DNA of 21,622 bases from a virus. A program made the position numbers and the translations under genes. The notes beneath the pieces were generated by a model. That model saw only the letters and a list, made by a program, of their open reading frames with translations, made no database searches and had not been told where the DNA came from. Where the stretch lies: the IMG/VR virus record IMGVR_UViG_3300001533_003139, positions 1-21,622 of that record; one strand, 5' to 3'. Numbering within the stretch: position 1 is the first letter of the stretch; each line of letters opens with the position of its first letter. Below are positions 695 through 20,783 of this stretch, one piece after another.

Positions 695-2308
695 TTAATA
701 TAGATTCATAACGAATTTATCACTTCCACAATCCCAAATTCGCTTCCATCCATTTTTACTCATTATATCGAATTCAGTTCCTTCACCAAGATTTTTTATT
801 TTATCTTTTCTAAAATTGAATCTATGATATCTTACCATTTCGTTATTTCGATAATACCAATAATTAGGTTTTGTTGGTCCTATTTTTTTAAATCCAATTT
901 TTTCGTAGGATTTACCATCGTTCCATCTTCTATCAGAGAATGAATATATGGATTTGGGTCTATATTTTTCTATAAAGTGTTTCAGACATCTACTCTGAAT
1001 ACCAGGAATGTTACAAGAAGAGCAGAATCTATTTAACTCCCATATATTTTCATTGAAATTTTTCATTCCTTTAGCTATATTCGGTCTTGAAAATGTCATT
1101 ACAGAAACTATTTCATCTTTATATATGGCAGCAAATTTTATGTTAGATCCCTGATATCCCTGTATATGATATTTATTGATAAAATCCTTCGCACTTTTTG
1201 TATCAATTTCTACTATTTTACATTTTCTAGCATATATCTTATTAGTTTCAAGACCCAGAATATATTTTAGCCTACTCTTTACAATTTCTTGTTTATTTAT
1301 CCATTCATCTTCAAATATAGTGATTAATCTATATCCTTCTTTATTACATAATCTTAATTTATTAATATGATAATTTTTATCTTTTTTATCATCACCATGC
1401 CAATAAAGCCCACAATATTCTATAGCTATCTTTTTCTCTGGAATCACAATATCCAATTCTTTAGGATATATAATTTTTCTATTATTTGTTGATGCTTTTA
1501 AACCTAGAGATACTATATATCTATATATTTCTTTTTCATCCCTTGATATCTTATTATTGCATTCTCCGCATCTTATTCCTTGCTGCCAATCATTCCATCG
1601 TATGTAATGTATATGTCCACGAGGACATATAAATTTGATTTTTGTCTTACTATTTTTTATGTTTTTAGACAGAACAATATAATCTTCACTTTCAAATTCT
1701 CTTTTTACATGATCTATAGTTATCATATTTTGATTTGTGCAATATGGACAACCATGCCCACTTTTAAAATCTTGAAATTTTATTTTATGTGCATGACCAT
1801 TAGGGCATATATATTCCAATTTTGTTTTATATGCGGCATCATACTCATCTTCATTTGTAATCAATTTATATCCCCTTTCGTCAAAATTTTTCTTTACCTC
1901 AGTATATGGTATTACTTTCTGTTTATTGGAACATCGAAAACATCTCCGTCCTTTTCTCCAATTTTGCCATAAAATAGATCCGTTATGCCCTTGTGGGCAG
2001 ATATATTTTATTTTTTCTGTCTTAATTTTGAAATAAGGATACTCTTCTTCCGTGGGATAGATTAATTTATATCCTTCATTCAAAAAGGAATTGTATATTG
2101 TTTTATATTGTGTCTTTCCTCTTAATTTTTTGCATATATGACATTCATAATCTTCTTTTATGAATTCATACCATCTTACATGATATCTATGACCATTTGG
2201 GCAGATAAAATTAAATATCGTTTTAGATACACCTTTATATTCATTTTCTTTTGTGAGTAATTTATAATTTTTACTTTCAAACTTATCTTTCACATTTTTA
2301 TAGTCCAT
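695..2308 (-). CDS. free-standing Vsr-like homing endonuclease with four zinc modules
   Basis: The product is 537 residues. An earlier in-frame ATG at 2524 is rejected because the ATG at 2306-2308 has an AAGGAG SD seven bases upstream, and the added N-terminus would be antisense to the phosphatase gene. Residues ~15-250 hold four similar modules, each ending CPxGH-W/F-CxxC (cysteines near 36/56/59, 104/123/126, 168/187/190, 228/247/250). They are presumably zinc-ribbon DNA-binding units. Residues ~255-350 hold the nuclease: KELDIVIPEKK, AIEYCGLYWHG, YHINK, ITIFEDEW. Candidate catalytic residues are E284, D286, E297, H304 and H314, as in the EDxHD/Vsr-like family of phage homing endonucleases. 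The C-terminal ~180 residues (SVMTFSRP, ELNRFCS, FSDRRW, IWDCG) match a domain common in phage intergenic homing endonucleases. It is expected to cut an allele lacking the gene and spread by repair. Confidence 0.88.
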   Translation of the reverse strand: MDYKNVKDKFESKNYKLLTKENEYKGVSKTIFNFICPNGHRYHVRWYEFIKEDYECHICKKLRGKTQYKTIYNSFLNEGYKLIYPTEEEYPYFKIKTEKIKYICPQGHNGSILWQNWRKGRRCFRCSNKQKVIPYTEVKKNFDERGYKLITNEDEYDAAYKTKLEYICPNGHAHKIKFQDFKSGHGCPYCTNQNMITIDHVKREFESEDYIVLSKNIKNSKTKIKFICPRGHIHYIRWNDWQQGIRCGECNNKISRDEKEIYRYIVSLGLKASTNNRKIIYPKELDIVIPEKKIAIEYCGLYWHGDDKKDKNYHINKLRLCNKEGYRLITIFEDEWINKQEIVKSRLKYILGLETNKIYARKCKIVEIDTKSAKDFINKYHIQGYQGSNIKFAAIYKDEIVSVMTFSRPNIAKGMKNFNENIWELNRFCSSCNIPGIQSRCLKHFIEKYRPKSIYSFSDRRWNDGKSYEKIGFKKIGPTKPNYWYYRNNEMVRYHRFNFRKDKIKNLGEGTEFDIMSKNGWKRIWDCGSDKFVMNLY

Positions 2309-2321
2309 TTTTTTCTCCTTA

Positions 2322-2329
2322 TATAAATA
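2322..2329 (+). promoter_or_regulatory. T4-type late promoter word for the plus-strand operon
   Basis: TATAAATAG on the plus strand is an exact T4 late-promoter match. Transcription would start near 2336, about 60 bases before the TTG start at 2397, and would read the long operon to 15664. The word sits immediately behind the SD of the divergent homing endonuclease gene, so the two 5' regions overlap. Confidence 0.6.
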
Positions 2330-2358
2330 GTAATAGAGTTGTCCATATCTTATACTCT

Positions 2359-2366
2359 TATTTATG
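2359..2366 (-). promoter_or_regulatory. possible late promoter word for the homing endonuclease
   Basis: CATAAATA on the minus strand differs from the T4 late consensus at the first base. It lies 50 bases upstream of the ATG at 2308 and would give a ~45-base leader. The same variant occurs at 18822-18829 in front of the tRNA. The evidence is weak, from position and similarity only. Confidence 0.3.
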
Positions 2367-2396
2367 TCAAACTTATGGAATGGGGGTAATATATTT

Positions 2397-3074
2397 TTGC
2401 GACTTTCAACTTTTATAATAATTAACGAACTTGCATCTATATATGGAAAGGGAATTACATTTGTCGATATTGATGAAACTATATTCCATACTTTTGCAAA
2501 GATATTTGTTAGAGATACTAGCACAGGGGAAATAATAAGAAAATTATCTAATCAAGAATTTAATACATATGAGCTTAAGCCAAGTGAAGAATATGATTTT
2601 GGTGAATTCAGAGATGCTAAATTTTTTCAGAAAACATCTATACCTATTCCAAAAACAGTAAACAGATTAAAGAGAATGTTGAAAAATATAGATAGAAGGG
2701 ATTCGGATATAGTATTTCTTACAGCGAGGGGTAGATTTGATAGCAAAAAAGATTTTCTAGATACATTCCAAAAATACGGAATACCTATGGATAGAATAGT
2801 AGTTGAATTTAGTAGTGGTGGTGGATCAATAGCAGAATATAAAAAATCAACTGTTATGAAATACTTACGAACTGGTAAGTATCGGAGAGTACGATTAATA
2901 GATGATGACATGTCAAATTTGAGAGCATTTTTAAAGATAGAAAATAGTTTGCCTGACGAGATCATAGAGAAAGTAAAGAATAGATACAATATAACTACGG
3001 AGGAGAGCATACCAGTAATAGAATTCTTCGCTTTACATATTGATCAAAATGGTAATCTTAGGAGGGTCAAATAA
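2397..3074 (+). CDS. HAD-superfamily phosphatase
   Basis: The product is about 225 residues. I prefer the TTG at 2397 over the ATG at 2364. A GGGGG SD-like run (2382-2386) lies ten bases before it, and the resulting N-terminus MRLSTFI matches the MRLxxFI/YI starts of the genes at 3673 and 14369. HAD motifs are complete: FVDIDET (D24, D26; motif I), FLTARG (T109; motif II), a lysine in YKKSTVMKYL (motif III) and RLIDDD (D169-D171; motif IV). This predicts a Mg-dependent phosphoester hydrolase of the 5'-nucleotidase or polynucleotide-phosphatase type. The substrate cannot be read from sequence. It is the first gene of the long plus-strand late operon. Its stop overlaps the next start (TAATG). 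If the ATG is used instead, 11 residues are added. Confidence 0.8.
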   Translation: MRLSTFIIINELASIYGKGITFVDIDETIFHTFAKIFVRDTSTGEIIRKLSNQEFNTYELKPSEEYDFGEFRDAKFFQKTSIPIPKTVNRLKRMLKNIDRRDSDIVFLTARGRFDSKKDFLDTFQKYGIPMDRIVVEFSSGGGSIAEYKKSTVMKYLRTGKYRRVRLIDDDMSNLRAFLKIENSLPDEIIEKVKNRYNITTEESIPVIEFFALHIDQNGNLRRVK

Positions 3075-5943: not shown

Positions 5944-8900
5944 GTGCTTGTTGATGAAATTATAGGCCATACTGCATTTATCAATTTTTCAGGATATGCA
6001 AACCACGCAAGAAATTTTTTTACTGAACTTAATAAATTAATACCAACTAGAATTAGGAACTTTTCTCATACACCAGATATTTCACATCTGACTGCAGAAC
6101 AGCGCGATATGATAATAGAGCAGTCATGGAAAGTACCACCATGGAAAATAGGAACTCCGTGGATGAGAATACCTGGTAAGAAATATCTTAATATCATTTT
6201 AATGGAATCCCATCACTACTATTATTATGATAGTTATGATGATCCAACCATAGCATATAATGTATGGGAAAGTACCAGACAATTACCACAGTTTTTTAAT
6301 AGACTTCTTGATTTTAATCAATTATGGGTTCCGTCTGAATGGCAGAAAGAAGTAACCATAGAACAGGGATATCCAGAAGACAAAATAAAAGTTGTTCATG
6401 AAGGAATTGATGGTAGTTTATTTTATCCTGATAGTGTTGATACACCACCTTCAGAATATCAAAATGATAAATTCAAGTTTATATATTTCGGTCGATGGGA
6501 TTATAGAAAATCCACAACTGAATGTATTAGAGCTTTCTTAAATGAGTTCAAGAAAGATGAACCAGTCGAATTGATATTATCAGCTGATAATTCATATCCT
6601 GTTGATGGTTATAGTTCTACAGAAGAAAGACTGCATAAGTATAATCTGGATGATCCTAGAATACAGATCATCCATTTTCCACCATTTACCGAATATATAA
6701 AATATTTGAGACTTGGAAATGTATTTTTAAGTTGCGCAAGATCAGAAGGTTGGAATCTTCCCCTTTGTGAAGCTATGGCTTGTGGTATTCCAACTATATG
6801 CTCTAATTATGGTGCTCAGTTAGAGTTCGCTAAAGATATATCTCATCTAGTAGATATAAAAGGAATGAAGGATGCTCAACAAATATATCATCTATCAGAG
6901 TGCCCAGGTCAATTTGCAGAACCTGATTTTGAACATTTACAGCATGTAATGAGAGATGTATATGAAAATTACGATGTTTATAAAGACAAAGCATTAAGAG
7001 ATTCTTACAAGATAAGAAGTGATTTTTCATGGAAGAAAGCTGCTAAAAAAGCTTATGAATTAATAGATCAGTTGGATGTTCATACATGGTCAACTAATCC
7101 TAAAGAAGCGATAAAAACATCATGGATGATAGATGAAAAGAAACCAAAAGTTATTATAGATAGCCGTGAAAAATTAGGAAGATGTTTTTGTAATATAAAA
7201 GATTTAAAAAGTGGTACAAGCATTTATGCAACTAATTTTGATCTTCAAAAGGGATCTTCTGTATGGATGGCACCAGGAGTATCCCCAAAAGAAGTATCTG
7301 GATTAATTATTGAGATAACAGATGAGAATGGAAAATTGATACACAAAAATAGTGTCAAATATGATAATGATGTTGACTATAAGGAATCTGAATTTGTATA
7401 TAAAAAGCCAGAGAAAAGAGATAATTGGTTTAAAAATTATCATGAAGATGTAAGAAAATTAGATGGTAGAATTGATTTATATGAAAAGGATGATTTTAAG
7501 GGATCCACAGTTCTTGATATAGGATGTAATTCAGGTCAGATATCATTCCAGGCAAGAAAATGGGGAGCTAAAGAAGTAACGGGTATTGATTACGATAAAG
7601 CCGCCATTGATACTGCAATGAAAAATAATAATGATCTAGATGTATTTTTCTATGTTGATGATATTGATAATCCTTTATTTTGGTCATCTATACCAGACTA
7701 TGATGTAGTGTTATATCTATCAATAATAGGAACACCAGAATTAGAAAATCCATATGGCGGCCTTTCTAAAGCTTGTATGAAAACAAATAAGGTTATGTAT
7801 TTTGAAGGACATGGACTACATGAATATTCAGAATATATGAATTTTTTGCTGAAATTTACCGACTTTTCTGAAATTGTTTATAAGGGTGTTGTCCAAAATA
7901 ATGATAGACCTTTTATAAGATGTAGTAGAAAGATATACAATATGGATGAAGCTTTACTCAAGCTTGTTGATGTATCTAAAAGACATAATAAGATTGCAAT
8001 TGTTGGAAAGCCCCATGTAGGTAAAACATATATGAGGAAAAAAATCCAGGATATGCCGGAATTTAAAGATTTTGTAATTGTCGATGATCTTGGTGAAGTA
8101 AGTGAAAATAATGATGGTTATAATTCACTTGGTGATGAATATATAAAACCATTTGGTGATAATAGATATCCAGAATGGCCTTTTATTTCAGAAGATCAGA
8201 GGAAGAAAGTAAATGAATATGATAAAATTATAATGTTTGATTATAGATCTCTTATGCATATTGAGAATTTTGATGTTGTCTTTAACATGATAACTGATAT
8301 GAAAAGTAGCCATTTTGAGAATTATAAAAATAATTATACTCTTTATTATAGAAACCCACCTTTTGTAAATACTGAGAATATAAAGGAATTTTATACTGTA
8401 TATAATGAAGTAAATGAAATATCAGTGGAACCACAACCACATATAGAATTAGAATCACAACCACATATAGAGCCAATTGATATACAAGAAATTCCAAATA
8501 CGAATAATATTCAATTTAACGTTCATTTTATAGATGGTCCTTTCCTAGAGATCAAAATGAATGAAAGTGATAATGAAGATTATGATGTCTATTTTATTGA
8601 TAACGATATCGGTGAAGTAATTTTTAAAACTAAGATAAAACCGAATATGTGGACACGATCTAATAGGAAATATTATACTAATTGGAGAATAGAAGTCAGA
8701 AAGAATGATAATCTTATATTTGAGCATAATATGGATCTGTATGATAAACGAGTATTGATAACTATAGATAGTAAATCAATAGGTGATAACATTGCGTGGA
8801 TGCCATATGTAGAGGAGTTTAGAAAGAAATGGAATTGTAATGTGATACTTTCTACATTTTTCAATCATTTATTTGAAACTGAATATCCCCATATACAGTT

Positions 8901-10308
8901 TATCTCTCCTGGAAATGTAGTGCGTAATATATATGCTCAGTATTTGATTGGATGTTTTGATAATGACTATGATAGAAATAAAAATAATTGGAGATTAATT
9001 CCACTACAGCAAGTTTCCTCTGATATTTTAGGATTGGAATATAAGGAAATAAAGACAAGGGTTACGAGAGGTGGTATTTCGTCTTCAGTAAAAGAGTTCA
9101 CAGCTTTTGATCTATCTACCCAAAAGAACAAAAAAATTAATATGTCACTTCCTGAATTCTGGACTAAAATATATAATGAAAATATGTTAGAATGGCGGGG
9201 AGAAGAATCAAAGAGTGGAGAAGGATCTGAAAAAGATAATGCGGATACAAAAATTAACTTAATAAAAAGTATAATAGAAGAAAATCAAATATCAAGTATA
9301 CTAGATCTGGGATGTGGTGATATATATTGGATGCAAAAGATATTGGATAACTTTCAAGGTAATTATTTAGGAATAGATGTAGCTCAAGATGTTGTTGATG
9401 AAAATATTAAGAAATACGAAAGCCATAAAAATATCGAATTTGATTGTCTAGATATAACTAGTGAAGGCGGCCAGAAAGCTTTTAGAAAAAGATACGGAGA
9501 CAGAAATTTTGATATGATTATTGGCCTCGACATTTTAGGCCATCTATTAAATGATGAGGTAGATTTATTCGTTAATTTTATATGTTCAATAAATCCAGAA
9601 TTGGTTTTCTTAACTAATAGAGAATCAAAAGAAGGAAGGTTATATCTCACGGGTCCAAAAACAAGATCAGAGGGAATCGATATAAATTATCATCCTGTAT
9701 TCAAAGAAAATTTTGAAATATTAGATAAATATGATCATGGTAGTATACCAGATGATAAATTTAATCTATATAAATTCATAGGCAATTCTGAAGATTTTAA
9801 GAAACCATCATCAGCTTTAGGAAAATATGTAACTATTTCAGAACATTCGACACTTAGATGTAAGTATTGGAATTATTTAGGTGGATGGCAAACTGTTGTA
9901 GACTATCTAAACGAGAATGGATATAAAGTTATTGTTGTAAGCAAAGAAAATACAAAACTGAAAAATGTTATCGCTAGAACTGGTAGAATTTTAAGAGAGA
10001 CACTTGCAACTATTCGTGATTCAGATTTTTTTATTGGTGTTTCTAGTGGACCCGCTTGGTTAGCTTGGGCATTAGATGTTCCTGTAATATTAATATCTGG
10101 ATGTACAGAGAGATGGAATGAATTTTCAGATGCAATACGAATAATTAATGAAGATGTATGCCATGGGTGTATTAATGATTCTAGATATCCTTTTGATAGA
10201 GGAAATTGGAATTGGTGCCCGAAAAATAAAAGCTTTGAATGTACAAGAAGTATATCACCGGAAATAGTAATAAGAGAAATTGATAAACTAATAGAAAAAA
10301 TATCATAA
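5944..10308 (+). CDS. giant fused glycosyltransferase / methyltransferase / O-heptosyltransferase
   Basis: The product is 1454 residues. The start is GTG, with AAAGGAGG nine bases upstream. Domains in order: GT4-like glycosyltransferase (~1-380; SEGWNLPLCEAMACG with E268-x7-E276); a linker; SAM methyltransferase 1 (~500-660; VLDIGCNSG at 523); a P-loop segment (~680-820; GKPHVGKT at 688); a QPHIE linker; then a split GT9-type domain. Its first part (~858-1040; SIGDNIAWMPYVEEFRKKW, SDILGLEYKEIK) and last part (~1294-1454; SGPAWLAWALDVPVILISG, GNWNWCPKNK) match TibC/BAHTCr autotransporter O-heptosyltransferases. Four cysteines (1406, 1409, 1425, 1433) fit their iron finger. A second methyltransferase (~1041-1293; ILDLGCGD) sits inside that domain. 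It probably builds and transfers a decorated sugar to protein in the cytoplasm; target unknown. A fibre gene follows directly. Confidence 0.85.
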   Translation: MLVDEIIGHTAFINFSGYANHARNFFTELNKLIPTRIRNFSHTPDISHLTAEQRDMIIEQSWKVPPWKIGTPWMRIPGKKYLNIILMESHHYYYYDSYDDPTIAYNVWESTRQLPQFFNRLLDFNQLWVPSEWQKEVTIEQGYPEDKIKVVHEGIDGSLFYPDSVDTPPSEYQNDKFKFIYFGRWDYRKSTTECIRAFLNEFKKDEPVELILSADNSYPVDGYSSTEERLHKYNLDDPRIQIIHFPPFTEYIKYLRLGNVFLSCARSEGWNLPLCEAMACGIPTICSNYGAQLEFAKDISHLVDIKGMKDAQQIYHLSECPGQFAEPDFEHLQHVMRDVYENYDVYKDKALRDSYKIRSDFSWKKAAKKAYELIDQLDVHTWSTNPKEAIKTSWMIDEKKPKVIIDSREKLGRCFCNIKDLKSGTSIYATNFDLQKGSSVWMAPGVSPKEVSGLIIEITDENGKLIHKNSVKYDNDVDYKESEFVYKKPEKRDNWFKNYHEDVRKLDGRIDLYEKDDFKGSTVLDIGCNSGQISFQARKWGAKEVTGIDYDKAAIDTAMKNNNDLDVFFYVDDIDNPLFWSSIPDYDVVLYLSIIGTPELENPYGGLSKACMKTNKVMYFEGHGLHEYSEYMNFLLKFTDFSEIVYKGVVQNNDRPFIRCSRKIYNMDEALLKLVDVSKRHNKIAIVGKPHVGKTYMRKKIQDMPEFKDFVIVDDLGEVSENNDGYNSLGDEYIKPFGDNRYPEWPFISEDQRKKVNEYDKIIMFDYRSLMHIENFDVVFNMITDMKSSHFENYKNNYTLYYRNPPFVNTENIKEFYTVYNEVNEISVEPQPHIELESQPHIEPIDIQEIPNTNNIQFNVHFIDGPFLEIKMNESDNEDYDVYFIDNDIGEVIFKTKIKPNMWTRSNRKYYTNWRIEVRKNDNLIFEHNMDLYDKRVLITIDSKSIGDNIAWMPYVEEFRKKWNCNVILSTFFNHLFETEYPHIQFISPGNVVRNIYAQYLIGCFDNDYDRNKNNWRLIPLQQVSSDILGLEYKEIKTRVTRGGISSSVKEFTAFDLSTQKNKKINMSLPEFWTKIYNENMLEWRGEESKSGEGSEKDNADTKINLIKSIIEENQISSILDLGCGDIYWMQKILDNFQGNYLGIDVAQDVVDENIKKYESHKNIEFDCLDITSEGGQKAFRKRYGDRNFDMIIGLDILGHLLNDEVDLFVNFICSINPELVFLTNRESKEGRLYLTGPKTRSEGIDINYHPVFKENFEILDKYDHGSIPDDKFNLYKFIGNSEDFKKPSSALGKYVTISEHSTLRCKYWNYLGGWQTVVDYLNENGYKVIVVSKENTKLKNVIARTGRILRETLATIRDSDFFIGVSSGPAWLAWALDVPVILISGCTERWNEFSDAIRIINEDVCHGCINDSRYPFDRGNWNWCPKNKSFECTRSISPEIVIREIDKLIEKIS

Positions 10309-15673: not shown

Positions 15674-15844
15674 ATGGATAAAGGCACTTACATGGAGATT
15701 TGTAGGTGTGATTGTGGTTTAAACATCGACAGGGACTTAAATGCTTCAATTAATCTTGAACATTATGGATTAGATAAACTCAAACATACCGCCAGTTCGG
15801 CGGGAATTAAAGCCAATGAAGCAGGAAGAAAACATGGAGTTTAG
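15674..15844 (+). pseudogene. tnpB: 3' remnant of an IS605-family tnpB (OrfB)
   Basis: A 56-residue frame starts only ten bases after the ferritin-like gene. It contains CRCDCGLNIDRDLNASINL, the last zinc knuckle and final catalytic aspartate region of TnpB (consensus CxxCG...DRDxNAAxN). It then has KHTASSAGIKANEAGRKHGV, the usual TnpB C-terminal tail. The rest of TnpB (~350 residues, with the other RuvC acidic residues) is absent, as is any tnpA. It is therefore a degraded or decapitated insertion-sequence remnant. The ATG at 15674 is chosen only as the first in-frame codon. In intact elements this 3' segment together with the right end encodes the omega (guide) RNA. Confidence 0.82.
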
Positions 15845-15941: not shown

Positions 15942-16835
15942 TCAAATAAGTTTTAATTTAGAAACATTTAAATTATCACCCTCTTTCAATGGAATTTCAT
16001 CTACATTAAACTTTTCTTTATCGTAATATCTTATACGTTTAAGAGAATGATCATCTAGATATTTTACAGAATCGGCAATATCAAATATTGTAGCTCCCTC
16101 CGCCTTGTCGGCATGTTTTCTAAGTGATCTGCCTATTGATTGTAATACTCTTATTTTACTCTTGAATGGTGATGCCAGTATAATATATTTTAAATTAGGA
16201 ATATTTATTCCTAACTGAAAAATACCATAGGTAGCGATAAGAATAATATCTTTTCTTTGCATACATTCTTTTCTCCAATATTCTCTTATCTCGGCATTAT
16301 CTCTACCTGATAAAAATACAATTTTTTTAGATTTTCCAGAAACAGATTCAAGAAAATCTTTCAAATATTCACCTTCCTTTTCTACTTTTCCTACTAATAT
16401 CAATATGTTATGATCCACCATTACAGTTAATTTGTCTATCAAATCCAATCTAAATTTATTTTCAAAAACACTATCTTTTACTGTATCATATGTTCCATCA
16501 TAATACTGATCATACTTAATACTTATAGATTTTATATTGCATTTACTGATATATCCCTTTTCAGCTAATGTTCCAGATGAATATTCTCTTAAAATAGGTC
16601 CTAGATATGATTTTATATTCCACATATCTAGCTTAGAAGTTGGTAGAGTTCCAGTATATCCTAAACGATAAATAGAATTGGAACATTTTTTCAATATAGT
16701 TGAAATTGCATGGCTGCGGGCGCCGTGACAATTTGAGACCACAATTCCGTTAGCTATATAATTATTATTTTTTCTTACATGTAGATTATATACAATTTCA
16801 GGTCTCTCTATTTCTTTTCTTTCTATCATTTTCAT
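15942..16835 (-). CDS. uvsW: C-terminal intein segment plus C-terminal half of UvsW-like helicase
   Basis: The product is 297 residues. Residues 1-35 are an intein C-terminal segment (VYNLHVRKNNNYIANG, then IVVSN) ending in the conserved Asn, followed by Cys36 as the +1 nucleophile. From Cys36 the protein is a helicase: CHGARSHAI (rest of motif II), GYTGTLPTSKLD (motif III), IATYGIFQLGINIPN (motif V) and QSIGRSLRKHADK (motif VI). It ends like T4 UvsW (YDKEKFNVDEIPL). The frame differs from the upstream gene; in-frame stops lie only a few codons before the ATG at 16833-16835, so it must start there or be reached by a frameshift. The start MKMIERKEI resembles starts of natural split-intein C-halves. 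The SD is poor (GAGA). Spliced to the N-half it gives ~481 residues, close to T4 UvsW (about 500). Confidence 0.85.
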   Translation of the reverse strand: MKMIERKEIERPEIVYNLHVRKNNNYIANGIVVSNCHGARSHAISTILKKCSNSIYRLGYTGTLPTSKLDMWNIKSYLGPILREYSSGTLAEKGYISKCNIKSISIKYDQYYDGTYDTVKDSVFENKFRLDLIDKLTVMVDHNILILVGKVEKEGEYLKDFLESVSGKSKKIVFLSGRDNAEIREYWRKECMQRKDIILIATYGIFQLGINIPNLKYIILASPFKSKIRVLQSIGRSLRKHADKAEGATIFDIADSVKYLDDHSLKRIRYYDKEKFNVDEIPLKEGDNLNVSKLKLI

Positions 16836-17796
16836 AATTCGATCTCATTTTTAGAAGGTTTATTCTATCCCTTTCTGTTAGTAAGGAAAAATCTATATCA
16901 TTCCATTTTTCTATAAAATATCTTTCGTCAATAATGAAGAACGTATATCCTTCATTTTCACACCATTCCTTTAATGATTTAATTTTTATAATAAATTTCT
17001 TATCATTCTGATGTTTTAGGGGTTTTATTTCTATTACTTCTTTTAAAATATCATTGGAGAAATCGGTCAAATAAACCTTTGTTTTTCCGTTAAAATTATA
17101 TAACAATCTGATTCTTTCATAATCAAAATCTGGATTCAATATATAGAATGCTGCTTCCCAAGACGAGCGGAATTTTTTATCTCCGATTCTAGATGTCCAG
17201 TGTGTTCTAGAATTATGTATATGTGGTGTAAATTCTCCGTTCAGGATTTTATCTTTCATTTTTCTTGATAGTATATGTTTAGCTTTATCTGGATATTCCT
17301 TTCCATACATAGAATTTCCTTTGCCCGTCCTATCCTTTGACATCTTTTCTAGTCTCTTATCTGTTTCTTTTGTGAGCCCTTTGTTCCAAGGTATCTGGAC
17401 GCCTTTTTTACCTTTGTTCCAAGGGGGTCCTGTATTCAAATTTTTTCTTAATCTCTCACCATATAATTTCTGTGATTCTATCCCTCCTTTCCTTGAAGCA
17501 ATCCACTTTAAAGAAATGATATTATCATCGAAGCTGAGTTCATCTGCTCTTATAAATCCCCTTTCAGTTAAAAATTTATGATTTCCTGTAATTTCTATCT
17601 CTTTTCCATTGTCAAATTTTATTCTATACATTTTCTCATTTGAAGATATTTTCAAATTCTCAAATCTTTTTTCTACAATATCATATTCGACTTCCTTTTT
17701 ATAGATATTATAGCTTTTTATAATATCACCTTTCTTTATATTTTTTATCTTTTTTCTGCTATTTTTTGTTGTTATCAAAGTTTCCCCATCGAGGCA
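16731..17796 (-). mobile_element. intein with homing endonuclease in helicase motif II, frame-broken (split?)
   Basis: The element runs from the Cys220 codon of the upstream gene (17796-17794) to the Asn35 codon of the downstream gene (16733-16731). It separates DE from CH of the DECH box, a typical choice of a highly conserved site. Its length of 1066 bases is not a multiple of three. The two parts are in different frames with a 38-base overlap (16798-16835). The break lies between the endonuclease and the C-terminal splicing blocks, the position where natural split inteins are divided. It is either a trans-splicing split intein or a cis intein disabled by one indel. Confidence 0.82.
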
Positions 17797-18453
17797 TTCA
17801 TCAATTATAACACCATCATATAACTTAAGTTTTTTATGTTCATTACTCAAAGTTTGCCATGTTGATACAACTATTGTAGATTCAAATTCCTTATACATTC
17901 CATATACTCTACCTATATCATATTTAATTCCATAATTCGTCATGTCATCATAGAACTGCTCTACAAGACTGATAGTAGGAACTATTATTATACACCTCTT
18001 TATAACATTATTTTCCAATAATGTTTTTATTACATATGATATGATCAAGCTCTTTCCGCTGGCTGTTGCTATTCTCAGAATACCTCTAGAATGTTTTAGT
18101 GATTCTTCTATACAGTCTTTTTGGTAGTCATAAGGATATAAGGATAAATCATATCGGGGAATAAGTGAGTATCCTTTGAATAAAGCTGATACTTCGGGAT
18201 CAATTTGATAGGGAACTTCTGGATAATTTTTCTTATGAAATTTTAGCCAGTCTATAAGAAGTCCATATGGTAATGTTCTAGCTTTATCGCTAAATAATGA
18301 TATTTTACCGTCCCATACACCAGCCTTAAATTTTGGCATATGATAATATCCATCAACATTAGTTGTAAAGTAATCCTTTAGGTTTTTCAGATATTCGCGG
18401 TCTGGTGTATCTATTTGTAGCTTTATATTACTTACCTTTTTTATGATTATCAT
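16798..18453 (-). CDS. uvsW: N-terminal half of UvsW-like helicase plus intein N-segment with homing endonuclease
   Basis: The product is 551 residues. The SD is AGGTGA, and the ATG comes one base after the preceding gene's stop. Residues 1-219 are the N-half of a superfamily 2 helicase like T4 UvsW, which branch-migrates and unwinds recombination and replication intermediates. Walker A is ATASGKS (129-135), motif Ia is IIVPTISLVEQF, and Walker B is DGVIIDE (213-219). The chain then becomes an intein at Cys220: block A CLDGETLITT and block B GKEIEITGNHKFL with T289-x-x-H292. Residues ~340-400 are NUMOD3 DNA-binding repeats (GPPWNKGKKG, IPWNKGLTKE, GNSMYGKEYPDKAK). Residues ~417-515 are a PD-(D/E)xK/Vsr-like nuclease (RSSWEAAF E433, TDF D464, VIEIK E475/K477). 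The frame ends 38 bases into the next gene. Confidence 0.88.
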   Translation of the reverse strand: MIIIKKVSNIKLQIDTPDREYLKNLKDYFTTNVDGYYHMPKFKAGVWDGKISLFSDKARTLPYGLLIDWLKFHKKNYPEVPYQIDPEVSALFKGYSLIPRYDLSLYPYDYQKDCIEESLKHSRGILRIATASGKSLIISYVIKTLLENNVIKRCIIIVPTISLVEQFYDDMTNYGIKYDIGRVYGMYKEFESTIVVSTWQTLSNEHKKLKLYDGVIIDECLDGETLITTKNSRKKIKNIKKGDIIKSYNIYKKEVEYDIVEKRFENLKISSNEKMYRIKFDNGKEIEITGNHKFLTERGFIRADELSFDDNIISLKWIASRKGGIESQKLYGERLRKNLNTGPPWNKGKKGVQIPWNKGLTKETDKRLEKMSKDRTGKGNSMYGKEYPDKAKHILSRKMKDKILNGEFTPHIHNSRTHWTSRIGDKKFRSSWEAAFYILNPDFDYERIRLLYNFNGKTKVYLTDFSNDILKEVIEIKPLKHQNDKKFIIKIKSLKEWCENEGYTFFIIDERYFIEKWNDIDFSLLTERDRINLLKMRSNYENDRKKRNRET

Positions 18454-18726
18454 TTAAATGAATTCACCTAGTATATTATTTATCTCTTTTTCTAGTTTGT
18501 TTTTTTCTAGATAGATTGAATGGAAGGTATTACGGACAGATACAGCCGCTTCAATAATATTATCTATATCTGGAATATTCCACCATGATCCTATTGCTAT
18601 AATTTCTATATCTTCAAGACCCCGTAGTTGATATGGATGATTTACCCATACTGCATCTCGTGGGGATAATTTATTCCGCCCCAAATAATCTTTATATTCA
18701 TAATAATTAGCAATAATGTATTTCAT
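18454..18726 (-). CDS. small protein between tRNA-Cys and uvsW, unknown function
   Basis: The product is 90 residues from the ATG at 18724-18726. The frame is open further upstream to 18837, but that extension would translate through the tRNA gene, so I reject it. The protein reads MKYIIANYYEYKDYLGRNK, then SPRDAVWVNHPYQLRGLEDI and an amphipathic C-terminal helix (YLEKNKLEKEINNIL). The middle part recalls uncharacterised phage proteins, but I cannot name a family or function. The SD is weak (GGAA about a dozen bases upstream). The next gene, uvsW, starts one base after its stop, so the two are coupled. Confidence 0.65.
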   Translation of the reverse strand: MKYIIANYYEYKDYLGRNKLSPRDAVWVNHPYQLRGLEDIEIIAIGSWWNIPDIDNIIEAAVSVRNTFHSIYLEKNKLEKEINNILGEFI

Positions 18727-18744
18727 ACATTCAATTCCATTTAG

Positions 18745-18813
18745 AGGCAACGCCCGGAGTCGAACCGGAACAATGGCTTTGCAGGCCACCGCCTCACCGT
18801 GAGGAGCATTGCC
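18745..18813 (-). tRNA. tRNA-Cys (GCA)
   Basis: Read on the minus strand, the 7-bp acceptor stem GGCAATG/CGTTGCC (one G-T pair) encloses a 4-bp D stem (CCTC/GAGG). It also encloses an anticodon stem GTGGC/GCCAT with loop CTGCAAA (anticodon GCA) and a T arm TCCGG-TTCGACT-CCGGG. The discriminator is T, as in tRNA-Cys, and CCA is not encoded. Total length is 69 bases. The D loop is short (5 bases) and position 8 is C instead of the nearly invariant T, so it may be slightly degenerate. A late-promoter-like word ends nine bases upstream. Confidence 0.78.
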
Positions 18814-18821
18814 TATAAATT

Positions 18822-18829
18822 TATTTATG
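18822..18829 (-). promoter_or_regulatory. late-promoter-like word before tRNA-Cys and uvsW
   Basis: CATAAATA on the minus strand is one base off the T4 late consensus. The predicted start (near 18815) falls almost exactly at the first base of the tRNA at 18813. T4 uvsW is itself a late-expressed gene, which fits. Confidence 0.4.
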
Positions 18830-18868
18830 TATACCATTATTTTTAATCTATGTAAATGGTCTTCTTAA

Positions 18869-18884: not shown

Positions 18885-19484
18885 ATGGATTTTTATGGCA
18901 TAGAATCTGAGGGTAGAGTTTATATTCAATGTGTATCTGAATTACCAGTATGGTCGTCTGACGATGAGGGTAGAATACTACTATGCCTATCTGATAATAA
19001 CGTATATTCAGGAACTAATGCAAAATGGCAATGTATATCTCTTGGTGGTACATCAGGCACATCAGGATCTTCTGGAACAAGTGGAACATCTGGAACAAGT
19101 GGAAGTTCAGGCACTTCTGGAGAATTACCACCTATACCATGTCCTAGCGATGCTACTTGTAATTCAGAATGTATGACATGTTATAGAGTAAATGTCTCTG
19201 ATCTTAGTGGAACCTGCGGACCGAATGCCTGTACTGATTTCAATGGTAGTCCTTATGTTAGTAATTCTAGTGATTGTTACTGGACTGCAACGTATACAGG
19301 TATTGATTACAACTTTTATTGTGACAGTGGGTATTGGTATTTTGAAATTTTAGATGGTACTACAGTATGTGCTAGATGGCGAGCACCAACCGTAGAGGAA
19401 TCGGATTGCCCACCATCTGAAGGATATTCTTGGGTAGAAGGATCTTGTGGAGAAGGGTCAATTACTGTTGAATTGTGCAGTTAG
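18885..19484 (+). CDS. modular (G-T/S-S)n protein with Cys-rich C-terminal domain
   Basis: The product is 199 residues. Residues 1-53 are the shared N-terminal cassette (MDFYGIESEGRVYIQ, SELPVWSSDDEGRI, YSGTNAKWQCIS). Residues ~55-79 are a Gly-Thr/Ser-Ser triplet linker. The rest is a cysteine-rich domain with 13 cysteines (CPSDATCNSECMTCYRV, ARWRAPTVEESDCPP, ending ELCS). Disulfides or metal binding are possible. No signal peptide is present, so it is more likely a virion appendage protein assembled in the cytoplasm than a secreted one. It heads a cluster of paralogues; the next gene begins 33 bases later. Cassette and triplets are shared with the collar fibre family, which supports a tail or head decoration role. 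Function is otherwise unknown. Confidence 0.75.
   Translation: MDFYGIESEGRVYIQCVSELPVWSSDDEGRILLCLSDNNVYSGTNAKWQCISLGGTSGTSGSSGTSGTSGTSGSSGTSGELPPIPCPSDATCNSECMTCYRVNVSDLSGTCGPNACTDFNGSPYVSNSSDCYWTATYTGIDYNFYCDSGYWYFEILDGTTVCARWRAPTVEESDCPPSEGYSWVEGSCGEGSITVELCS
19047..19121 (+). repeat. 9-bp-period array coding GTS/GSS triplets
   Basis: This is about 25 codons of Gly-(Thr/Ser)-Ser. Glycine falls in every third position, so the protein has G-X-Y periodicity as in collagen but without proline. Codons vary (ACA/ACT, TCA/TCT/AGT), so the array is not a recent perfect expansion. Confidence 0.9.
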
Positions 19485-19517
19485 CTTATATCGCAAGCAC
19501 ATAAGATAAGGTAGAGT

Positions 19518-20432
19518 ATGAAATATTACAATGTAGATTTACAAGGAAAACTTTATATTGAAAGGTTGGAAACTTTGCCTGTATGGACATCTGATGATGA
19601 AGGAAGACTTGTATATGATAAAGAGACTGATGAAATTTATTTCGGATCTAATACGTCATGGCTTTGTATTGGAAGATTAAATGTAGGTTCATCAGGGACA
19701 TCTGGATCCTCTGGGTCTTCTGGTTCTTCAGGATCAAGTGGAACAAGCGGAACAAGTATTGTCGGGTCAGAATGGGAAACAAAATTAGATTCTACTTATT
19801 GGGAATATCAATTCCGATTTACCTGGACAGGATCTGCATGGTTGTTAGATCCTATCTACAGTTTTGGATCAATATGGAATGAATCAGCAGAAGGATGGTG
19901 GGTAGATTATAGGCCAACAAAAGCTAGAATAAGTTTCACAGGTACAGTTACAAAAATAGAAATAAAGGCATCGGAACAAACATTGGGCGAAGTTGATAAT
20001 CCTACATCTCCGCAAGAAATAAACCTTACTTATCCAGAGCCACCATTATCACAAGACCCAACGCATATTTATGTTTATTCAACCGAAGCGATTTCGATAA
20101 CCAATATTGAATTTTATGTAGCTTTACCTGGAGCTATATCTTCAGGGAGTAGTGGAACAAGTAGAACAAGTGGAACAAGTGGTACTTCTGGTACATCTGG
20201 AAGTAGTGGTACATCTGGAAGTAGTGGCACATCAGGCACATCAGGCACATCTGGATCCTCTGGAACTTCAGGCACAAGTGGTACATCAGGCACATCTGGA
20301 TCCTCTGGAACTTCAGGCACAAGTGGAACAAGTGGTACATCTGGATCCTCTGGAACTTCAGGCACAAGTGGTGGCTCATCTGGGACGTCTGGAACGTCAG
20401 GTACTAGTGGTACATCAGGGACATCAGGATAA
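19518..20432 (+). CDS. modular fibre-like protein with long (G-T/S-S)n C-terminal array
   Basis: The product is 304 residues. The start has an AAGGTAGAG SD. Residues 1-55 are the shared cassette (MKYYNVDLQGKLYIERLETL, PVWTSDDEGRLVY, YFGSNTSWLCIG). A short triplet linker (~57-80) follows. Then comes a beta-rich domain (~82-208) with many aromatic residues (YWEYQFRFTWTGSAW, WWVDYRPTKARISFTG, IYVYSTEAISITNIEF); it looks like a jelly-roll or carbohydrate-binding fold, but I cannot assign it. The C-terminal ~95 residues are almost pure Gly-Thr/Ser-Ser triplets, ending the protein. A long unstructured or collagen-like tail at the C-terminus is unusual for a fibre. The end of this gene and the start of the next are part of a 96-bp direct repeat. 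Confidence 0.75.
   Translation: MKYYNVDLQGKLYIERLETLPVWTSDDEGRLVYDKETDEIYFGSNTSWLCIGRLNVGSSGTSGSSGSSGSSGSSGTSGTSIVGSEWETKLDSTYWEYQFRFTWTGSAWLLDPIYSFGSIWNESAEGWWVDYRPTKARISFTGTVTKIEIKASEQTLGEVDNPTSPQEINLTYPEPPLSQDPTHIYVYSTEAISITNIEFYVALPGAISSGSSGTSRTSGTSGTSGTSGSSGTSGSSGTSGTSGTSGSSGTSGTSGTSGTSGSSGTSGTSGTSGTSGSSGTSGTSGGSSGTSGTSGTSGTSGTSG
19686..19757 (+). repeat. first GTS/GSS triplet array of the 19518 gene
   Basis: About 24 codons of Gly-(Thr/Ser)-Ser link the N-terminal cassette to the beta-rich middle domain. Composition and period are as in the other arrays, rich in GSS here. Confidence 0.9.
20145..20429 (+). repeat. long GTS/GSS triplet array with 45-bp higher-order repeats
   Basis: This is about 95 codons of Gly-(Thr/Ser)-Ser with minor interruptions (one Arg for Gly, one extra Gly). 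A 35-base block beginning ACATCTGGATCCTCTGG recurs exactly at 20247, 20292 and 20337. That is a 45-base (15-codon) spacing and points to recent unequal duplication inside the array. Reading frames on the opposite strand here are artefacts of the repeat. Confidence 0.9.
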
Positions 20433-20503
20433 AAATATGAAATATTACGGAATAACTTCTAAATCTAAGATATTCATTGAAAAGTTAGAAACATTACCAG
20501 CAT
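20408..20503 (+). repeat. 96-bp direct repeat, copy 1
   Basis: Identical to 20688-20783. It contains the last triplet codons of one gene, its TAA, the spacer, and the ATG with the first 22 codons of the next gene, ending at CCAGCAT. Confidence 0.93.
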
Positions 20504-20712
20504 TTGAAAAGTTAGAAACATTACCAGCATGGTCATCTGACGATGAAGGTAGATTGGTATATATAACATCAGAAGGTAAAACATATGGTGCAACTGATGA
20601 AGGATGGGAAGATCTAGAATTATTCTATACTTCTGGAACATCAGGCACAAGTGGAACATCTGGATCGAGTGGAACATCTGGATCCTCTGGTACATCAGGG
20701 ACATCAGGATAA
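20437..20712 (+). CDS. short cassette + (G-T/S-S)n protein without C-terminal domain
   Basis: The product is 91 residues. The N-terminal cassette (MKYYGITSKSKIFIEKLETL, AWSSDDEGRLVYITSEGK) contains an extra nine residues because EKLETLPAF/W is duplicated in tandem. After LELFYTS the protein consists only of Gly-Thr/Ser-Ser triplets and stops; it lacks the C-terminal domain expected in this family. The stop and the following start lie inside the second copy of the 96-bp repeat. The spacer before its ATG is only four bases, with a weak AGGA SD. It may be a functional short form, a remnant of a recombined gene, or a product of misassembly across repeats. Confidence 0.6.
   Translation: MKYYGITSKSKIFIEKLETLPAFEKLETLPAWSSDDEGRLVYITSEGKTYGATDEGWEDLELFYTSGTSGTSGTSGSSGTSGSSGTSGTSG
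20477..20530 (+). repeat. 27-bp perfect tandem duplication
   Basis: TTGAAAAGTTAGAAACATTA plus CCAGCAT occurs twice in a row (20477-20503 and 20504-20530), duplicating nine codons in frame. The first unit ends at exactly the same base as the 96-bp repeat. Confidence 0.93.
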
Positions 20713-20783
20713 AAATATGAAATATTACGGAATAACTTCTAAATCTAAGATATTCATTGAAAAGTTAGAAACATTACCAGCAT
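20688..20783 (+). repeat. 96-bp direct repeat, copy 2
   Basis: Identical to 20408-20503, offset by 280 bases. Its right edge (CCAGCAT) joins an unrelated continuation out of frame, marking a recombination or assembly junction. Confidence 0.93.

What the first reader, a model, noticed from the sequence alone, without database searches (positions are those of the whole stretch)
16731..17796. Apparent split intein with homing endonuclease inside UvsW helicase motif II
Seen: Cys220 block A, TxxH block B, NUMOD3 and PD-(D/E)xK nuclease in one frame; the C-terminal blocks F/G, Asn and Cys+1 in another gene with its own ATG and a 38-base overlap. The C-segment is 35 residues long and starts MKMIERKEI, like known split-intein C-halves. 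Known: phage genes fractured by split inteins together with homing endonucleases have been described from metagenomes. Here the endonuclease is fused to the N-half and the two genes overlap, an intermediate between a cis intein and a fully fractured gene. The insertion splits DE from CH in the essential DECH box, so no helicase can form without splicing.
Basis: partly seen in the sequence, partly recalled or inferred. Interest (0 to 1): 0.78.

Follow-up and report, generated by a model that had tools for sequence, protein, structure and literature searches.

The report
Phage helicase gene fractured by split intein
A T4-like phage repair helicase is encoded in two overlapping genes whose protein products most likely stitch themselves together through a split intein, with the intein's mobile DNA-cutting enzyme fused to one half; the two-gene split recurs in cultured phages, so it is not a sequencing error.

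Summary
The refuting indel is very unlikely. Cultured Salmonella (S16, STP4-a, SEA1, CF-SP2) and Proteus (PM2) phages carry a homologous split intein at the same DE|C site, with the nuclease ORF overlapping the IntC ORF by the same 38 nt. In 75 of 79 distinct junctions the nuclease ORF runs over the IntC start codon. All invariant splicing residues are present. Close relatives lack the intein.

About 73 distinct UvsW loci have three ORFs (IntN | nuclease | IntC). The window alone has the nuclease fused to IntN, lacking the nuclease's ~100-residue N-terminal part, its start and any late promoter: a derived fusion, not a step from cis to split. Terminase genes of cultured phages (JK32, TB34, G2494, Thanatos-2) show the same fused layout.

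This is a new variant of the known "fractured gene" kind. The best by-product is an allelic pair (L149 vs L150/L151): the same intein is cis without, and split with, an 885-bp nuclease insertion. Splicing and cleavage are inferred, not shown.

The parts
17797..18453 (-). UvsW N-terminal extein (residues 1-219 of ORF1), ends ...VIIDE
   Evidence: Pfam UvsW_N, ResIII, DEAD; coordinates
17503..17796 (-). IntN, residues 220-317: Cys1 (17796-17794), block B T-G-N-H at 17589-17578
   Evidence: HMM of the UvsW split-intein family; C1, T289, N291 and H292 invariant in 63/63
16801..17502 (-). Fused endonuclease, residues 318-551: two PWNKG NUMOD3-type motifs (17427-17371), RSSWEA, DF, EIKP catalytic motifs (17169-17020)
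   Evidence: Alignment with free-standing relatives; AlphaFold model pLDDT 86; nearest PDB folds TnsA and I-Bth0305I
16798..16835 (-). 38-nt overlap: end of nuclease ORF (stop TGA 16800-16798) and start of IntC ORF (ATG 16835-16833)
   Evidence: Same 38-nt overlap in S16, STP4-a, SEA1, CF-SP2, PM2, L085, L174
16731..16835 (-). IntC, residues 1-35 of ORF2: blocks F and G, terminal Asn (16733-16731)
   Evidence: Pfam Intein_splicing reaching profile end; N25, Y26 and N35 invariant in 63/63
15942..16730 (-). UvsW C-terminal extein (Cys+1 ... 262 aa, incl. stop)
   Evidence: Pfam Helicase_C; phrog_9690, phrog_16

Best explanation
This is a fractured uvsW gene. A Cys1/Asn/Cys+1 (class 1) split intein sits between DE and C of helicase motif II. 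ORF1 makes UvsW-N-IntN-nuclease; ORF2, starting at an ATG inside the end of ORF1, makes IntC-UvsW-C, probably by translation coupled to the end of ORF1. The halves associate and trans-splice to a 481-residue helicase, releasing IntC and an IntN-nuclease fusion. The nuclease (NUMOD3 + TnsA/Vsr-like PD-(D/E)xK) would cut intein-less uvsW alleles so that the insert is copied in. Shown by sequence: gene layout, intact splicing residues, intact nuclease motifs, empty sites, recurrence. Inferred: splicing, coupling, cleavage, homing. The IntN-nuclease fusion is most likely a derived state: a deletion removed the nuclease's own start and N-terminal part from a three-ORF ancestor.
For: Layout and residues. 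Same split and same 38-nt overlap in independently sequenced cultured phages of two genera. 73 distinct three-ORF UvsW loci in IMG/VR and isolates, plus 12 split without a recognised nuclease and 8 cis. IntC ATG inside the nuclease ORF in 75 of 79 distinct junctions. Empty sites in 53-58% identical helicases. IntN 56% identical to S16 while HelN/HelC are only 30-34%, as expected of a horizontally moving element. Window groups with three-ORF loci L127/L132 (91/90 support). Window lacks the ~100-aa nuclease N-terminus and start that L127, L132, L143 have. TATAAATA just after IntN in 19 of 63 loci vs about 4 expected, absent in window.
Against: No protein or read data. The window sequence is one metagenomic contig, so the internal deletion or fusion could be an assembly fault, although the split itself cannot easily be. 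Window has NNN rather than NHN in block F (15 of 63 have N there). No strong Shine-Dalgarno precedes the ORF2 ATG. No nuclease target or activity was tested. The grouping with L127/L132 is not above the strict support threshold.
Confidence: 0.88

Rival explanations
1. One-base indel (sequencing or assembly) splits an ordinary cis intein carrying its endonuclease in one frame.
For: The two frames are one base apart and the overlap is A-rich, as an indel would look.
Against: Five cultured phages and dozens of contigs have the same split with a start ATG at the same intein position and overlaps of 4-50 nt in two different frame classes (61 in one, 16 in the other of 79); exactly 38 nt recurs. The ORF2 frame has a TGA just upstream of its ATG.
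Confidence: 0.03
2. The halves are joined by programmed +1 frameshifting inside the overlap, so that the intein splices in cis.
For: ORF2 lies in the +1 frame of ORF1, as in 61 of 79 junctions.
Against: 16 junctions are in the other frame class; a start ATG is kept at the IntC border; no common slippery motif seen; three-ORF relatives have an IntN stop long before the overlap.
Confidence: 0.04
3. The fusion of IntN to the nuclease is an assembly artefact or a decaying nuclease; the phage really has, or recently had, three ORFs or an inactive nuclease.
For: No other UvsW locus among about 94 distinct ones is fused; the N-terminal nuclease part and start are gone.
Against: Frame is open through 551 aa, catalytic motifs E, D, ExK and both NUMOD3-type motifs intact. 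The same fusion exists in terminase of cultured phages. L174 also has a short nuclease with overlap intact.
Confidence: 0.2
4. The gene is simply in pieces: the two helicase parts work by association, without splicing.
For: Known for phage Aeh1 NrdA and T4 topoisomerase (PMC2988022).
Against: All splicing residues are invariant in 63 loci and the break falls between the Walker B acidic pair and the next motif residue, which association would have to restore with the intein parts still attached.
Confidence: 0.05

Closest known systems
Split UvsW of cultured Gelderlandvirus (Salmonella phages S16, STP4-a, SEA1, CF-SP2) and Bragavirus (Proteus phage PM2)
   Same: Same gene, same DE|C site, homologous IntN (52-56%), nuclease (35-37%) and IntC (51-54%), same 38-nt overlap
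   Different: Nuclease is a separate ORF with a zinc-finger-like N-terminus; annotated only as 'DNA helicase' pieces and 'hypothetical protein'
Fractured genes with split inteins and Vsr-like homing endonucleases (Dassa et al. 2009, doi 10.1093/nar/gkp095; cited in PMC7090010 and PMC10448857; text not held, described from own knowledge)
   Same: Conserved phage enzyme broken by a split intein with an endonuclease gene between the halves
   Different: Here the endonuclease is fused to IntN; whether UvsW is among their enzymes could not be checked
Fractured TerL of Krischvirus JK32/TB34/G2494 and Shewanella phage Thanatos-2 (AceL-TerL/GOS-TerL-like)
   Same: Terminase N-part + short IntN + homologous nuclease fused in one ~580-aa ORF overlapping the IntC-TerL-C ORF by 20 or 13 nt, also at DE|C
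   Different: Atypical split (IntN ~30 aa, IntC ~105 aa); different host gene
Cis mini-inteins at the same UvsW site (L150, L151, L166, L183, L189) and cis intein with a different insert in L026
   Same: Same insertion site, homologous intein halves for the mini-inteins
   Different: One continuous ORF, no TnsA-like nuclease
I-Bth0305I and TnsA
   Same: Nearest solved folds to the nuclease model (Foldseek prob 0.85 and 1.00, E 0.06 and 0.01)
   Different: No significant sequence match in PDB; E-values weak

Membership tests
Class 1 split intein | Cys1, block B T/N/H, C-terminal Asn, Cys/Ser/Thr +1 | tested here: met
   C220, T289, N291, H292, N35 and C36 present; invariant in 63 loci
Class 1 split intein | Halves encoded by separate genes, not one frame | tested here: met
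   Two ORFs, 38-nt overlap; same in cultured phages
Class 1 split intein | Trans-splicing activity | not testable with these tools
   Needs expression
Fractured gene (split intein + endonuclease between halves) | Conserved enzyme interrupted at a conserved motif with empty-site relatives | tested here: met
   Motif II of UvsW; empty sites L008-L018
Fractured gene (split intein + endonuclease between halves) | Endonuclease gene lies between the halves | tested here: met
   Nuclease 17502-16801 between IntN and IntC
Fractured gene (split intein + endonuclease between halves) | Endonuclease is free-standing | tested here: not met
   Fused to IntN in the window; free-standing in all 73 distinct relatives with this nuclease
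PD-(D/E)xK, TnsA-like nuclease | E...D...ExK motif and restriction-endonuclease-like fold | tested here: met
   SWE, DF, EIK conserved; model nearest to TnsA; ExR in S16/PM2
Homing endonuclease | Cuts the intein-less allele and drives its conversion | not testable with these tools
   Only sporadic distribution and higher intein than extein identity support it
UvsW helicase | UvsW N-domain and SF2 helicase motifs across both halves | tested here: met
   UvsW_N 3e-11, ResIII 3e-15, Helicase_C 2e-6; phrog_16

The most novel reading that the evidence does not exclude
The IntN-nuclease fusion is a working composite: the nuclease is made only with UvsW, is freed as an IntN-nuclease by trans-splicing, and the UvsW allele series (cis mini-intein, split without nuclease, three ORFs, fused two ORFs) shows repeated, reversible switching between cis and split inteins by gain and loss of an overlapping nuclease gene.
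Probability: 0.35. Interest if true: 0.72.

Novelty: new variant of a known kind. Interest (0 to 1): 0.52.

Why it matters
It places a large, largely unannotated split-intein family in one phage gene, including cultured Salmonella and Proteus phages that can be tested directly. The same intein allele exists as cis mini-intein, split, split with a free nuclease and split with a fused nuclease. At least five cis/split changes are needed on the tree, and one near-identical pair differs by a single 885-bp nuclease insertion flanked by TTTTTATG. That makes the question of how split inteins arise, and whether they revert, directly testable. The halves are also candidate new trans-splicing tools (Cys+1, Ser-Asn end like Npu DnaE; the Npu comparison is from my own knowledge).

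Tried and rejected
Indel artefact: rejected by independent genomes with the same overlap. Shine-Dalgarno relic AAAGGAGG in the fused linker as an internal nuclease start: rejected, no in-frame start follows it at usable distance and the codons encode the conserved RKGG of the nuclease. A second fused UvsW locus: sought among 80 further nuclease loci, none found. T4 late promoter for the window's nuclease: none. Sequence search of PDB with the nuclease: nothing. Literature: no held paper joins split intein and UvsW; Dassa 2009 is not held. The bacterial and archaeal genome collection gave one distant relative, on a Nitrosarchaeum contig.

Full report
What is there. On the minus strand the window encodes ORF1 (18453..16798, 551 aa) and ORF2 (16835..15942, 297 aa), overlapping by 38 nt in different frames. 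ORF1 is UvsW-N (1-219, ending VIIDE), IntN (Cys1 = residue 220, TGNH block B) and a NUMOD3 plus TnsA-like nuclease. ORF2 is a 35-residue IntC ending in Asn, then Cys+1 and the rest of UvsW. The stated intein limits 16731-17796 are exact.

Not an indel. A tblastn search of phage isolates found the same arrangement in Salmonella phages S16, STP4-a, SEA1, CF-SP2 and others (Gelderlandvirus) and in Proteus phage PM2 (Bragavirus): UvsW-N–IntN, nuclease, IntC–UvsW-C. Their nuclease ORF overlaps the IntC ORF by 38 nt, as in the window, and the nuclease stop lies in the same ACCTGA that encodes the intein's RPE/KPE/KPD. Across 79 distinct junctions, 75 have the IntC ATG inside the nuclease ORF, with overlaps of up to 50 nt.

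How widespread. A survey with intein, nuclease and extein profiles gave, at this one UvsW site and counting distinct IntN sequences: 73 with IntN | nuclease | IntC, 12 split without a recognised nuclease, 8 cis without nuclease, and 1 with IntN–nuclease fused, the window. Lak megaphages (code 15) have the three-piece form in a related helicase. PHROGs already holds the pieces as separate families without naming the intein.

Splicing competence. In 63 dereplicated inteins Cys1, block B Thr/Asn/His, and IntC Asn17, Asn25, Tyr26 and Asn35 are invariant, and the window has all of them. The penultimate residue is Ser in 50 of 63. Joined exteins give 481 residues and align without a gap at the junction to intein-less helicases that are 53-58% identical. 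In 29 intein-less relatives the residue after DE is Cys in 14, Val in 10, Ala in 3 and Thr in 2, so the cysteine is needed by the intein rather than by the helicase.

Nuclease. The window's nuclease domain aligns with 32 relatives; RSSWE, DF and ExK are conserved. The model (pLDDT 86) is nearest in the PDB to TnsA and to the homing endonuclease I-Bth0305I, with weak E-values (0.01 and 0.06), and in viral models to the PM2 nuclease and to a 583-aa protein, which by length matches the fused terminase ORF of phage JK32 (identity inferred).

The fusion. Relatives L127, L132, L138 and L143 end IntN, then often carry a T4-late-promoter-like TATAAATA (19 of 63 loci, about 4 expected), a new start and about 100 residues before the segment that aligns with window residue 318 (IASRKGG). 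The window lacks all of that and reads through. It groups with L127/L132, both three-ORF (support 91/90). In-frame starts in the linker lack a ribosome site. The layout has a precedent: terminase of Krischvirus JK32, TB34, G2494 and Shewanella phage Thanatos-2 fuses TerL-N, a short IntN and the same nuclease family in one ORF that overlaps the IntC–TerL-C ORF, while HY03 has three ORFs. AceL-TerL and GOS-TerL are known atypical split inteins with short IntN (PMC11766414).

Mobility. IntN is 52-56% identical to S16/PM2 but the helicase parts only 30-34%. The closest helicase relatives mostly lack the intein. This fits horizontal movement; cleavage is untested.

Evolution. L149 (split, with nuclease) and L150/L151/L153/L155 (cis mini-intein) share about 95% identical DNA on the IntN side; the difference at the break is an 885-bp insertion between copies of TTTTTATG, whose ATG is the IntC start. 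At least five cis/split changes are needed on the tree, direction unknown.

Limits. No read data, no expression data, one contig for the fused form, Dassa 2009 not readable here. Novelty of UvsW as a fractured gene in print is therefore unsettled; no held paper mentions it.

Noticed in passing
L149:470-1371 versus L150:443-459 (also L151, L153, L155): Near-identical intein alleles: cis mini-intein versus split by an 885-bp nuclease insertion flanked by TTTTTATG, the ATG becoming the IntC start.
   Followed up: partly
L265:2448-5020, L271: Same nuclease family breaks UvsW at another place (before the P-IVISTWQ motif) with only partial Hint-like pieces on either side and DEAH instead of DECH.
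   Followed up: no
L024:2830-3782: A different intein with a long insert, in frame, in motif I (ATA|CHAKGD...THN|SGKS) of UvsW.
   Followed up: no
L026:3131-4061: A cis intein with another kind of insert at the same DE|C site, in one ORF.
   Followed up: no
L285, L286, L287, L289 (JK32, G2494, TB34, Thanatos-2): Terminase large subunit fractured with TerL-N, short IntN and nuclease fused in one ORF; annotated as two terminases.
   Followed up: partly
L290:469-3444 (Campylobacter phage WX1): PhoH-like ATPase fractured at VIVDE|C with the same nuclease family in between.
   Followed up: no
63 UvsW-type inteins, just after IntN: T4-late-promoter-like TATAAATA in 19 of 63 loci against about 4 expected, as if the nuclease brings its own promoter.
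   Followed up: partly
window 695-2524 (-): Second endonuclease gene, phrog_559 HNH/homing endonuclease with zinc-ribbon repeats and a Vsr/MTES-like part.
   Followed up: no
window 15674-15844 (+): 56-aa ORF matching the C-terminal TNB domain of TnpB/Cas12f-like proteins, below the Pfam cut-off; probably a remnant.
   Followed up: no
window 18744-18813 (-): tRNA-Cys (GCA) lies inside a 127-aa ORF (18454-18837) immediately upstream of uvsW.
   Followed up: no
window 18885-21622 (+): Successive proteins with a common N-terminus and long SGTSGTSGSSG collagen-like low-complexity tails.
   Followed up: no
window 5944-10308 (+): 1454-aa ORF combining glycosyltransferase and methyltransferase domains.
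   Followed up: no
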